This document shows, piece after piece, positions 14,312 to 19,131 of a stretch of DNA of 64,000 nt (positions within the stretch are counted from its first letter, which is position 1; each line of letters starts with the position of its first letter). The notes beneath the pieces are model-generated. The model saw only the letters and a list, made by a program, of their open reading frames with translations, had not been told where the DNA came from and searched no databases. Origin of the DNA: Alphaproteobacteria bacterium (lineage in GTDB: Bacteria > Pseudomonadota > Alphaproteobacteria > Rhodobacterales > Rhodobacteraceae); contig JAUHVK010000015.1 of assembly GCA_030425145.1 (NCBI GenBank), forward strand, positions 46,881 through 110,880, written 5' to 3'. A program made the position numbers and the translations under genes.

Positions 14312-15025
14312 TCAGGCGAGGTCGCGCCGCATGGCGCGGGTCTGGTTGCGGTTGGTGCGGTAGGCGTGCGCCGCGCTGACCAAAGCGCGGAAGATGGCGC
14401 GCTGTCGGTGGGCATAGAACAGGTGTTCTGGGTGCCATTGCACGCCTAGGGCAAACGGATCCTGGACGCGTTCAATGGCTTGCACCATGCCGCCTGTATC
14501 GCGCGCGGATATCCGCAGGCCTTGACCAAGACGATCCACAGCCTGAGTGTGCAAGGCATTGACCTTCATCGGCTTTTCGCCGCTGATCAGAGACAGGTGG
14601 GTTTCGGATTCAACACATACTTCACGTTTTGGCAGGATCGTCGTGATCTTGCGGTCGGGGCCGTAAGTCGTCCACGCGTCCTGATCGAGCGTTCCGCCCA
14701 GTGCTACGTTGAGCATCTGCGACCCGCGGCAAATTCCCAAGACAGGGATGTTCTGTTCCAGCGCGGCTTCGGCAAGGCGGCGCTCCAACGCATCGCGCTC
14801 TGGGTCGAGCTTGGCCGAGATGCCCAGCTTGCCACCATAGAGATCGGGTCCGATATCGTCCCCACCGCCGATGATGAGTCCGTCGACATGTTCGAGTTCG
14901 GACACCCGACCGACACCCCAGCGCACGCCTCGGCCTCCGGTGATCCAAAGGTTAAGGTTGATCAGGGGATAGACCCTCCAGCCCGTGCGCGAAGATGTGG
15001 TGATGGCGATCAATGGTCGGCTCAT
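14312..15025 (-). CDS. Class I glutamine amidotransferase-like / gamma-glutamyl-GABA hydrolase (peptidase C26) family
   Basis: GGGDDIGPDLYGG, nucleophile LGICRGSQMLNVALGG, GVQWHPEHL; overlaps the amidoligase gene by 4 nt. Confidence 0.88.
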   Translation of the reverse strand: MSRPLIAITTSSRTGWRVYPLINLNLWITGGRGVRWGVGRVSELEHVDGLIIGGGDDIGPDLYGGKLGISAKLDPERDALERRLAEAALEQNIPVLGICRGSQMLNVALGGTLDQDAWTTYGPDRKITTILPKREVCVESETHLSLISGEKPMKVNALHTQAVDRLGQGLRISARDTGGMVQAIERVQDPFALGVQWHPEHLFYAHRQRAIFRALVSAAHAYRTNRNQTRAMRRDLA

Positions 15026-15993
15026 ATGTTGGCCTTTGCGTCGTGTTCCCGAAGCAGGGTGCCAATGGTACGGACCCAGACGGATTTGCGTTCGAACCAA
15101 GCTGAATCATGGGTTTTCCATGCGTCGCGCAGGGCGTCGAGCAACGCGTTGTTTGCCGCCACCATCTCAACCTGTCGCCACAACTGCCAAGGCTGGAGCA
15201 GGGACCAGTCAGCCTCGTCGATGCGACTATCGGGCAGGCGAAAATGAAATGTCGGGCGGGCGGCGGTCTTGTCTTGGATGTCGAACAGCTCGGCGAAAAG
15301 ATCAGGCTCCGCGTGTTTGAAAAGGGGTAGTAGATCAAGGCTCAGATTGCGGCTTTGGATGTGGCTGCAGGCCATGCGCATCAGATCGGCAAGGCTGTCA
15401 TAGCTGTTGTGCGCCAGTTTCGAAATCAGCGCCTGCGGCCATGCACCGATGAAAGGCATCATGCGTCGGGTCGTATCAACCTGTTCTTTCGCACGCAGCC
15501 ATGGCTCAAGCAGGGCAAATGCCGTGATCGTGTCCAGCGTGAATCTGTGGTCTGGCGACACGACCTCGGGGTTGAGGTGCACACCGAAGCCAAGAAACAC
15601 GCCGCTGCGCGACCCCATCGCGCCAATGCGGCGCAGGCCGGTGCAGATGGTGTTGAACTCTTCAAGCTGTGCGCGACTGAGTGGAGGCGTGACCACCTCA
15701 ACCGGGATCAGGCCGCGAAACGCGTCCAGCCCTTCTTTCAGGAAAGGCAGGTCGTCGCGTTTGCGCAGGGTGATGTCCAATTCGACTTCGATGTCGCCAA
15801 ACCGGGTGCCGGCGACCGTGACACTGTGATCCCCGCGATCTGTAACCGTGCCGCCGAATTCCTTGGCGATCAGCGTTCCGGTTTCCAACTCGGTTGGTCC
15901 CGCAAATTCGATCTCAATACCGCACAGGCGGTCTTTGCCATCTGAGGTCTGCTCAAAGGGCAAGGCGGGAAAGGTGGGATTGGTCTCGATCAT
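15022..15993 (-). CDS. Amidoligase family protein (Amidoligase_2-like carboxylate-amine ligase)
   Basis: CGIEIEFAGP...GDIEVELDITL...GVHLNPE...: amidoligase fold signature; start reassigned to ATG 15993. Confidence 0.82.
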   Translation of the reverse strand: MIETNPTFPALPFEQTSDGKDRLCGIEIEFAGPTELETGTLIAKEFGGTVTDRGDHSVTVAGTRFGDIEVELDITLRKRDDLPFLKEGLDAFRGLIPVEVVTPPLSRAQLEEFNTICTGLRRIGAMGSRSGVFLGFGVHLNPEVVSPDHRFTLDTITAFALLEPWLRAKEQVDTTRRMMPFIGAWPQALISKLAHNSYDSLADLMRMACSHIQSRNLSLDLLPLFKHAEPDLFAELFDIQDKTAARPTFHFRLPDSRIDEADWSLLQPWQLWRQVEMVAANNALLDALRDAWKTHDSAWFERKSVWVRTIGTLLREHDAKANI

Positions 15994-15994
15994 G

Positions 15995-17020
15995 TCACGC
16001 CTGTGTCGGAGCGAAGTCCGTTTCGGAGGGCTGCGTCGTTTCGGGTCCGTGGGCCATAAAGGCGGTGATCCAGACCAGAAGGGGAAGGGACACAATGCCG
16101 CCAATTGGCCCCCAGAGCCAGAGTCCGAACAGGATCGCCAGAAACACCACCAACGGGTTAAGTTGCAGCCGCTGGCCGACAAGGGTGGGTGTCGCGAATT
16201 GTGCTTCTGTCATGTTCAGCAGGAAATAGGCCACTGCCGGCAGCAGCGCGTAAGCGCCGTTGAATTCGGCAAAGCCAGCGACGCCAAGGGCCACGAGCAA
16301 CATCACCGGACCGAGGTAGAGCACGAAGTTCAGGATGAACGCGGCGGCCCCCCAGAGGATGGGGTTCGGAAGCCCAATCGCGGTCATCGCGACAAAGACG
16401 GCAATGCCGAGGCCCGCATTGATCGCGGTGACGGTGACAAAGTAATGCGACACGGCCTTGTCGGCCTGCCGCAGGGATGTGCCCATGCCCTTGAAGGTCG
16501 CGTAAATTTCGTTCTGCGTTAAGGTGAAAAAAAAGAACGTGCCCGCAAAGGTCAACAGTTGTGCGGCAAAGTTCGGCGCTACAGAGAGCGCGTCCAAGAG
16601 GCTAGGCATCGCCTCCTCGACTTCTTTGCCGTCCTCGGCCAGCGTCTGTTCCAGTTCGACCTGTACGGATTCCAGGCCCCGGATGGCGCGGCTGGCATCG
16701 ATCACCCACCAGCGGATTTCGTCTTCGATGCGCGGCACCTGGCCGATCAGGTCCATCACGATCGGACCAAGACCGGCGATCAGAAGCATGGTCAGCGCGC
16801 CGACGAAAACGAGGCTGATGCTGGCGCTGACCGCACGCGGAACACCCAGCCGCGCCAGAAGGCGCATACCGGGGGCTGCGACGATGCCCACGATCAGGCC
16901 AAGCGATACAGGGGCCAGAAGCCCTTTGGCCAATTTCATGGCGGTGACGACCGCGACCAGAGCAACCAGCGCGATGCAGACTGTCTGGACGCGGCCGCGC
17001 AATGCAGAGTGAGCGAGCAT
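15995..17020 (-). CDS. AI-2E family transporter (PerM-like)
   Basis: About eight hydrophobic helices with LAKGLLAPVSLGLIVGIVAAP and GLPNPILWGAAAFILNFVLYLGP. Confidence 0.88.
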   Translation of the reverse strand: MLAHSALRGRVQTVCIALVALVAVVTAMKLAKGLLAPVSLGLIVGIVAAPGMRLLARLGVPRAVSASISLVFVGALTMLLIAGLGPIVMDLIGQVPRIEDEIRWWVIDASRAIRGLESVQVELEQTLAEDGKEVEEAMPSLLDALSVAPNFAAQLLTFAGTFFFFTLTQNEIYATFKGMGTSLRQADKAVSHYFVTVTAINAGLGIAVFVAMTAIGLPNPILWGAAAFILNFVLYLGPVMLLVALGVAGFAEFNGAYALLPAVAYFLLNMTEAQFATPTLVGQRLQLNPLVVFLAILFGLWLWGPIGGIVSLPLLVWITAFMAHGPETTQPSETDFAPTQA

Positions 17021-17021
17021 T

Positions 17022-18174: not shown

Positions 18175-18620
18175 GACGATGTCTCCGCCGAATAAAGATG
18201 ACCGGACCACGGATCGCTGATGTCATCAGAAACAGCATTTGTGCCGTCACCCGATTTCAGGAACCGCGCAGCGGCAAAGCCCATAAGTGCGGCGCCGCCC
18301 AAGAAGAGGAGCGGGTTCCGACGGGCAAAGAGCGTGACATCGTCCACCATCTCGTCCACGGGTTTGTTTCGGAGATGTGCGGCGACCGAATTGATCTGCG
18401 CGCAGATCTGTTCGAACGCGGCGGCTTGAAGCGTTCCGGGTTCGAATTCACGGCCAGCAGCATTGGCTGCACTCCCTGCGTTTTCAACAGTATCGAGAGT
18501 GTGCTCGCGGGCTCCCTCTGCGTGGTCGTGAATGGTTTCAGAAAGGTGCGACTTGGCTTTCTCGACCATCTCTTTCGCGCCGGACTTAGCCGCGTCGAGT
18601 GTATGTGATTGGGTGCTCAT
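18171..18620 (-). CDS. YqjD/ElaB-like membrane-anchored protein
   Basis: Amphipathic N-terminus and terminal FARRNPLLFLGGAALMGFAAARFL motif. Confidence 0.75.
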   Translation of the reverse strand: MSTQSHTLDAAKSGAKEMVEKAKSHLSETIHDHAEGAREHTLDTVENAGSAANAAGREFEPGTLQAAAFEQICAQINSVAAHLRNKPVDEMVDDVTLFARRNPLLFLGGAALMGFAAARFLKSGDGTNAVSDDISDPWSGHLYSAETSS

Positions 18621-18644
18621 TATCAGGCTCCTTGAATTGTCGGG

Positions 18645-19082
18645 TCACGCCGCTTCGGACAGCTTTTCGATCTTGGCCCGCAGCGAAGTGCGCTGGGCGA
18701 CCAGAACGTTGTGAAGGGTGTCACCGGGGGACAGGCACTTGATGGCGTCGTCATAGCGCTTGAGGACATTTTCTTCGCCATCGACCACAGCATCGAGCGC
18801 ATCGCGGTCGATATCGCTGAAAAGGTCGCGCAGCTTGACAGCCGTCTTGTGCACTTCGCCCATGATCGTGCCAGAGCGATCGAGGTCAAAGCCAGCATCG
18901 GACGCGTGGCTGTAAATCTCGGCGATGTCTCTGGCATGTTGGTTTTGCAATGCGGCCAACTGACGACGCACGGAAGTGTCAGCGCGCTCAATCATGACAT
19001 CGTAGCCTTGGTTGATGTCGATCAGGGTATCGAACATGGATTGTACGCAGTTGTGCTGAGTGTGGTTTGTTGCGGTGGTCAT
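18645..19082 (-). CDS. DUF2383/PA2169-like four-helix bundle protein
   Basis: MTTATNHTQHNCVQSMFDTLIDINQGYDVMIERADTSVRRQL... all-helical. Confidence 0.7.
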   Translation of the reverse strand: MTTATNHTQHNCVQSMFDTLIDINQGYDVMIERADTSVRRQLAALQNQHARDIAEIYSHASDAGFDLDRSGTIMGEVHKTAVKLRDLFSDIDRDALDAVVDGEENVLKRYDDAIKCLSPGDTLHNVLVAQRTSLRAKIEKLSEAA

Positions 19083-19106
19083 TTTGGCCTCCTGGATCAC
19101 AGGTAG

Positions 19107-19131
19107 AACGCACCATCGTGATCAGAGTTCC
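19107..19131 (-). promoter_or_regulatory. EcfG-type GSR promoter of the seven-gene minus-strand operon
   Basis: Minus strand GGAAC-N16-CGTT (plus strand AACG-caccatcgtgatcaga-GTTCC), 25 nt upstream of the 19082 start codon. Confidence 0.8.

What the first reader, a model, noticed from the sequence alone, without database searches (positions are those of the whole stretch)
14312..19131. Seven-gene operon under one EcfG promoter, ending in an amidoligase + glutamine amidotransferase pair
Seen directly: an EcfG-type promoter (minus GGAAC-N16-CGTT, 19107-19131) precedes DUF2383-like, YqjD-like, holin-like, DUF3618-like, AI-2E, amidoligase and class-I GATase genes. All are on the minus strand, with gaps or overlaps of +24, -4, -8, +1, +1 and -4 nt. 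Established: the amidoligase fold makes carboxylate-amine (peptide/isopeptide-like) bonds, and C26-type GATase-like proteins hydrolyse gamma-glutamyl amides. Inference: a stress-induced envelope operon may include a synthesis/hydrolysis module for an unknown amide or gamma-glutamyl metabolite, or a cell-wall/protein modification. I know of no characterised role for such a pair in the alphaproteobacterial stress response.
Basis: partly seen in the sequence, partly recalled or inferred. Interest (0 to 1): 0.82.

Follow-up and report, generated by a model that had tools for sequence, protein, structure and literature searches.

The report
Stress-regulon amide ligase–hydrolase gene pair
In marine roseobacters, two adjacent enzyme genes that probably make and break an amide bond on an unknown small molecule have been moved repeatedly into the general stress-response gene set, which suggests an unrecognised chemical branch of that response.

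Summary
A GGAAC-N16-CGTT promoter motif lies 24 bp before seven minus-strand genes (DUF2383, a helical protein with no Pfam match, holin-X/YqjE-like, DUF3618, AI-2E, Amidoligase_2, Peptidase_C26) with the reported spacing. The genome is a Marivita (Rhodobacteraceae). The operon sits inside an island holding phyR, nepR, ecfG and seven of the window's nine EcfG motifs. The promoter is kept at the same distance in eight other Marivita genomes although its spacer has diverged.

Comparative evidence goes further. The amidoligase–C26 pair is adjacent in 77 of 80 named relatives, and in most other proteobacterial carriers sampled, where it has no stress-response link. Within Rhodobacteraceae it joined the general stress response in several layouts: behind the envelope genes here, alone with its own EcfG motif, and as the last genes of a nepR–ecfG–HWE-kinase operon. 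Ligase and hydrolase residues are intact.

The C26 partner's nearest solved relatives are the hydrolase PuuD and SpuA rather than ammonia-donating GATases, and some lineages keep the amidoligase without it. I therefore favour an opposed ligase/hydrolase pair on a gamma-glutamyl-type amide over a glutamine-fed amidation complex. The substrate is unknown, and no expression data exist here.

The parts
19107..19131 (-). EcfG-type promoter GGAAC-N16-CGTT of the seven-gene operon
   Evidence: same motif 24-25 bp before DUF2383 in 8 other Marivita genomes (one after correcting a start miscall); consensus as in PMC7083833
18645..19082 (-). DUF2383 (PF09537) four-helix protein, gene 1; ATG at 19082 preferred to GTG at 19100
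   Evidence: promoter spacing in relatives
18171..18620 (-). gene 2, 149 aa helical protein with a glycine-rich C-terminal segment; no Pfam match ('YqjD-like' by resemblance only)
17776..18174 (-). gene 3, Phage_holin_3_6 / YqjE-like membrane protein (PF07332)
   Evidence: E 5e-25
17022..17783 (-). gene 4, DUF3618 protein (PF12277)
   Evidence: E 1.6e-6
15995..17020 (-). gene 5, AI-2E family permease (PF01594)
   Evidence: E 1.4e-33
15022..15993 (-). gene 6, Amidoligase_2 (PF12224), the ligase of the pair; only copy in the genome
   Evidence: conserved E27, E29, D73, E99, N141, R215, D220, R246, H250, R252, E276; AF2 model pLDDT 90
14312..15025 (-). gene 7, Peptidase_C26 / class-I GATase-fold protein (PF07722), the predicted hydrolase; triad C99, H198, E200; overlaps gene 6 by 4 nt
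14249..14273 (-). second EcfG-type motif directly after gene 7, before two small genes
14026..14214 (-). 62-aa membrane-anchored-looking protein following the operon, possibly read through or from its own EcfG promoter
13757..14014 (-). DUF7218 + Rho_N protein, 85 aa
21012..21821 (-). PhyR, anti-anti-sigma response regulator of the general stress response
21904..22092 (+). NepR anti-sigma factor (PF18557)
22085..22633 (+). EcfG-type sigma factor
21854..21885 (.). overlapping divergent EcfG motifs serving phyR (-) and nepR-ecfG (+)
20704..20729 (-). EcfG motif before the 98-aa ORF 20387-20683

Best explanation
The seven genes form one transcription unit of the alphaproteobacterial general stress response (EcfG/NepR/PhyR). 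Five genes encode small envelope or membrane proteins and a permease. The last two form an independently mobile module: an ATP-dependent amidoligase with a glutamine-synthetase-like fold (Amidoligase_2) that joins a carboxylate, most likely the gamma-carboxyl of glutamate, to an amine, and a PuuD/SpuA-type C26 cysteine hydrolase that splits the same bond. Together they would set the level of a gamma-glutamyl-type amide (a stored or buffered amine, or an osmolyte-like metabolite) when EcfG is active. Shown here: gene content, promoter motif, its conservation, near-constant pairing, repeated recruitment into the stress locus, intact catalytic residues, PuuD-like partner. Inferred: ligase activity, opposing reactions, gamma-glutamyl chemistry, induction under stress.
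For: Promoter and island: 7 of the window's 9 EcfG motifs at 14-26 kb around phyR/nepR/ecfG; promoter position kept in Marivita. Recruitment: PhyR within about 8 kb in 36 of 80 loci; nepR-ecfG-HWE kinase-amidoligase-C26 as one operon, e.g. L107 with overlaps -11, -1, -14, -4; solo pairs with their own motif (L126); none in gammaproteobacterial loci. Pairing: C26 gene adjacent in 77/80, 20/20 and 26/30 distant loci. C26 nature: nearest solved relatives Lin1909, SpuA, PuuD, Foldseek PuuD 2e-18 and SpuA about 1e-17 against 6e-13 for the first ammonia-donating GATase, best NCBIfam match PuuD. Amidoligase without a C26 neighbour keeps nearly all core residues in 5 loci, and one such genome has no close C26 protein. 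Precedent: AtdA1 (GS-like ligase)/AtdA2 (GAT-like) make and hydrolyse gamma-glutamylanilide (PMC11335346).
Against: No expression data or substrate. The GS-like fold rests on weak Foldseek matches (best 4.7e-3, TM 0.3-0.4, although the top 17 are all GS superfamily), and profile comparison with glutamate-cysteine ligase found nothing. The fixed ligase-then-C26 order with 4-nt overlap is also what subunits of one complex look like. In phages the same amidoligase family pairs with unrelated class-II GATases (PMC3890496, PMC10580990), which hints at ammonia supply. 36 of 81 Rhodobacteraceae loci show neither GSR genes nor a strict motif.
Confidence: 0.5

Rival explanations
1. Glutamine-dependent amidation complex: the C26 protein is a glutaminase that channels ammonia to the amidoligase, which amidates a carboxyl group (cell-wall peptide, polysaccharide or metabolite), as MurT-GatD does in Gram-positives.
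For: Strict pairing and 4-nt overlap; class-II GATases pair with the same ligase family in phages; Cys-His-Glu triad intact.
Against: The partner is nearest to the hydrolase PuuD and to SpuA, clearly ahead of ammonia-donating GATases; it has the VN-x-LH-x-Q segment seen in the C26 relatives. Five amidoligase loci keep the core residues with no adjacent C26 gene.
Confidence: 0.27
2. Envelope modification module: ligase and hydrolase add and remove an amide or isopeptide link on peptidoglycan stem peptides, surface polymer or a membrane-anchored operon protein, stiffening the envelope under stress.
For: Operon neighbours are membrane or envelope proteins; a phage amidoligase/GATase role in cell-wall modification was suggested by Iyer 2009 as cited in PMC10580990.
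Against: The pair is conserved without these neighbours in most lineages, and no wall enzymes are linked to it in the neighbours scanned.
Confidence: 0.13
3. The pair is a passenger of the locus: it belongs to ordinary amine metabolism and its place behind an EcfG promoter is neutral or recent.
For: Outside Rhodobacteraceae the pair has no stress-response link, and 18 loci are rlmN-linked instead.
Against: The linkage recurs in different layouts on both sides of the deepest branch of the tree, including inside the nepR-ecfG operon; pairs with no envelope genes carry their own EcfG motif.
Confidence: 0.1

Closest known systems
AtdA1/AtdA2 (NpaA1/NpaA2) of aniline and naphthylamine degradation
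   Same: Adjacent genes for an ATP-dependent ligase joining glutamate to an amine and a GATase-fold hydrolase reversing it (PMC11335346)
   Different: AtdA1 is described as a GS-like gamma-glutamylanilide synthase, whereas this ligase matches only PF12224; no dioxygenase genes; here the pair lies in a stress regulon
PuuA/PuuD (and SpuA) polyamine pathway
   Same: C26 partner is nearest to PuuD and SpuA by sequence and fold; gamma-glutamyl amide ligation plus hydrolysis logic
   Different: No Pfam match to the PuuA-type GS family; no PuuB/PuuC oxidation genes in the operon; score far below the PuuD equivalog cut-off (96 against 266 bits)
Phage Amidoligase_2 + class-II GATase modules (Iyer et al. 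2009; phiEco32, LUZ24-like and OM43 phages)
   Same: Same ligase family encoded near an amidotransferase
   Different: Partner is an unrelated class-II GATase fold, with extra ATP-grasp and COOH-NH2 ligase genes; no tblastn match between this protein and 50,697 phage records
MurT-GatD peptidoglycan amidation complex
   Same: Ligase plus class-I GATase-fold gene pair, co-transcribed
   Different: MurT is a Mur ligase relative; this ligase is PF12224 and its partner is C26-type

Membership tests
Amidoligase_2 (PF12224) | Profile match over the whole domain | tested here: met
   143 bits against cut-off 22, residues 21-272
Amidoligase_2 (PF12224) | Conserved acidic/basic core residues retained | tested here: met
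   E29, D73, E99, N141, R215, D220, R246, H250, R252, E276 in 110/110 and E27 in 109/110
GS-like carboxylate-amine ligase superfamily | GS-like fold | tested here: inconclusive
   Foldseek top 17 all YbdK/GCL/GS/Dop but best E 4.7e-3; hhalign against GCL no signal
Peptidase_C26 / PuuD-type gamma-glutamyl hydrolases | C26 profile match with Cys-His-Glu triad | tested here: met
   156 bits against cut-off 20.5; C99, H198, E200 invariant in 15 sequences
Peptidase_C26 / PuuD-type gamma-glutamyl hydrolases | Hydrolysis of gamma-glutamyl amides | not testable with these tools
   Needs an enzyme assay
PuuD equivalog | NCBIfam equivalog cut-off | tested here: not met
   96 against 266 bits
AtdA1/AtdA2-type pair | Ligase of the GS catalytic family (PF00120) | tested here: not met
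   Only PF12224 matched
MurT-GatD | Mur-ligase partner | tested here: not met
   Only PF12224 matched
EcfG regulon | GGAAC-N16/17-CGTT promoter, conserved in relatives | tested here: met
   consensus as reported in PMC7083833
EcfG regulon | ecfG-dependent transcription | not testable with these tools
   No expression data; none found in the paper library

The most novel reading that the evidence does not exclude
The alphaproteobacterial general stress response has a metabolic arm in Rhodobacteraceae: a regulated make-and-break cycle of an undescribed gamma-glutamyl-type amide, important enough that its two genes were built into the nepR-ecfG-kinase operon itself and, separately, given EcfG promoters in several layouts.
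Probability: 0.4. Interest if true: 0.75.

Novelty: new variant of a known kind. Interest (0 to 1): 0.55.

Why it matters
I found no characterised function for a bacterial Amidoligase_2 protein in the library searched, and this one has no sequence relative in the PDB. General stress regulons are mostly known as lists of envelope and protection proteins of unknown role. A two-gene enzyme module that recurs in this regulon in different contexts gives a small, testable handle: delete two genes, look for one amide metabolite. It also offers culturable marine hosts in which to find the substrate of a widespread orphan enzyme family.

Tried and rejected
Substrate clues from neighbours outside Rhodobacteraceae: TauE, peroxidase, glycine transporter, CitMHS, GreA, VTT, M48, PPK2, GGDEF, methionine synthase, kinase; nothing consistent. 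Mapping catalytic residues through glutamate-cysteine ligase: no profile signal, and some of the GCL ranges were out of frame. Solved structure of an amidoligase relative: none. Phage relatives by tblastn: none. Natural amidoligase-C26 fusions: none among the best 120 of 1218 hits, all single-domain; weak, because of the length limits of that search. Iyer et al. 2009 could not be read and is cited only through papers that quote it. RNA families in 12-27 kb: none. The idea that the pair belongs to the envelope genes was dropped once it proved separable. Ammonia supply by the C26 partner was ranked second, not excluded.
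Full report
WHAT IS IN THE WINDOW. The motif GGAAC-N16-CGTT is at 19131-19107 (-), 24 bp before the ATG of a DUF2383 gene. Pfam gives DUF2383, no match for gene 2, Phage_holin_3_6, DUF3618, AI-2E_transport, Amidoligase_2 (143 bits) and Peptidase_C26 (156 bits). Between the operon and phyR (21012-21821 -) lies a CRP/FNR-type regulator (19213-19941 -). Divergent from phyR are nepR (21904-22092 +) and ecfG (22085-22633 +), then a PLD-like gene and a BrkB gene. 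This is the general stress response (GSR) locus. The genome is a Marivita: its close relatives by name are Marivita species.

IS THE PROMOTER MORE THAN CHANCE. The exact motif (spacer 16-17) occurs 9 times in the window against 1.08 in shuffles, and no shuffle of 100 reached 9. Seven of the nine fall at 14249-25721, including overlapping divergent copies between phyR and nepR, where an autoregulatory EcfG promoter is expected. The consensus is the one reported for EcfG (PMC7083833). Upstream of DUF2383 the motif is found 24-25 bp before the start in eight other Marivita genomes (L052, L056, L059, L061, L062, L064 and L074 directly; L060 after allowing for a start-codon miscall), while the 16-17 intervening bases differ widely. 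Over 80 related loci (1.26 Mb) the motif occurs 202 times against 29 for the reversed control. Genome-wide the looser pattern is not enriched (173 against 356 for the reversed control), so the clustering, not the bare count, is the evidence.

IS IT ONE OPERON. Gaps are +24 to -8, with no terminator or promoter-like site at the AI-2E/amidoligase junction; sigma-70-like sites are at chance level and minus-strand terminator-like hits there are weak and intragenic. Co-transcription remains inferred. A second EcfG motif (14273-14249) follows gene 7 and precedes a 62-aa gene and a DUF7218 gene, so a further EcfG unit begins there.

COMPARATIVE GENOMICS. All 17 genomes searched from the genus, the window's own included, carry the amidoligase, but only 3 of 20 other genomes sampled from the family do. 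The C26 gene lies next to it in 20/20 of the loci fetched, 77/80 named loci and 26/30 more distant proteobacterial loci, including ones from outside the Alphaproteobacteria. The five upstream genes are not fixed partners: of 81 loci, 21 have the envelope genes in front, 18 have rlmN, 7 have the ecfG operon and 35 something else. So the pair, not the seven-gene set, is the old unit.

THE STRESS LINK IS REPEATED. PhyR lies within about 8 kb in 36 of 80 loci; for a single-copy gene in a roughly 4-Mb genome that should occur in about 0.4% of cases (my arithmetic). In Anianabacter (L107) the order nepR-ecfG-HWE kinase-amidoligase-C26 is contiguous with overlaps of 11, 1, 14 and 4 nt, each gene checked against Pfam; Palleronia, Thalassococcus and Roseivivax are similar. 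In Mameliella, Marinibacterium and Maliponia the pair stands alone with an EcfG motif just before the amidoligase, and in L126 the 17-kb locus holds nine motifs against 0.23 expected. On the amidoligase tree these layouts lie on both sides of the deepest branch; the linked/unlinked label needs at least 8 changes, gains and losses not told apart. Outside Rhodobacteraceae no strict motif precedes the pair in the loci examined. I read this as an ancient metabolic pair recruited into the stress regulon within Rhodobacteraceae, more than once or rearranged several times. Caveat: gene calls in these loci are from my own simple caller.

THE ENZYMES. Across 110 amidoligases E29, D73, E99, N141, R215, D220, R246, H250, R252 and E276 are invariant, and E27 is in 109. 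The AF2 model is confident (pLDDT 90). Its top Foldseek matches are YbdK, plant glutamate-cysteine ligase, glutamine synthetase and Dop, all GS superfamily, but no match is below 1e-3, so the GS-like fold is likely rather than proven here. The C26 protein has an invariant C99-H198-E200 triad. It is nearest to Lin1909, SpuA and PuuD by sequence, and by fold at about 1e-16 to 2e-18 against 6e-13 for the first ammonia-donating enzyme.

MECHANISM. Two readings compete. In the first, ligase and hydrolase act on the same gamma-glutamyl-type bond, as in AtdA1/AtdA2, where the GS-like enzyme joins glutamate to aniline and the GAT-like enzyme hydrolyses the product because it is toxic at high level (PMC11335346). 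In the second, the C26 protein feeds ammonia from glutamine to the ligase. For the first: the partner's PuuD/SpuA affinity, and five amidoligase loci that keep the core residues without a C26 neighbour, one of them (G526) in a complete genome with no close C26 protein. For the second: strict order and overlap, and phages that pair the same ligase family with class-II GATases (PMC3890496, PMC10580990). I put the first at about 0.5 and the second at about 0.27. The physiological guess, that the product is an amine store or an osmolyte-like amide made under stress, is inference.

NOVELTY. Amidoligase/GATase pairing as such was predicted by Iyer et al. 2009, known to me only through papers citing it. 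I found no paper linking it to EcfG. The recruitment into the general stress response, including the nepR-ecfG operon, appears unreported in the library available; that library lacks most subscription journals.

Noticed in passing
window 14249-14273 (-): A second EcfG motif directly after gene 7, before a 62-aa protein and a DUF7218/Rho_N protein that follow the operon in most Marivita relatives.
   Followed up: partly
window 21854-21885: Overlapping divergent EcfG motifs between phyR and nepR-ecfG; the same overlapping arrangement is seen in L126 at 5455-5487.
   Followed up: partly
window 20022-20390 (+) and 20387-20683 (-): A small receiver-like or ANTAR-like protein (122 aa, by inspection) and a helical 98-aa protein with its own EcfG motif, between the CRP-type regulator and phyR, conserved in Marivita.
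   Followed up: no
L115 and L092 (around 7965-8924): Roseibaca and a related MAG keep an intact amidoligase at a different conserved site with no C26 gene beside it.
   Followed up: partly
L174 (oriented 8261-9471): A divergent Amidoligase_2 protein is followed by an overlapping 80-aa gene instead of a C26 gene, possibly a different subsystem.
   Followed up: no
L073 and L127: Records titled 'Enemella evansiae' and 'Oceanospirillaceae' carry Rhodobacteraceae-like loci, probably mislabelled or mis-binned assemblies.
   Followed up: no
L093 and 17 other loci: In many roseobacters the pair sits behind ialB-rlmN, a second conserved location without stress genes.
   Followed up: partly
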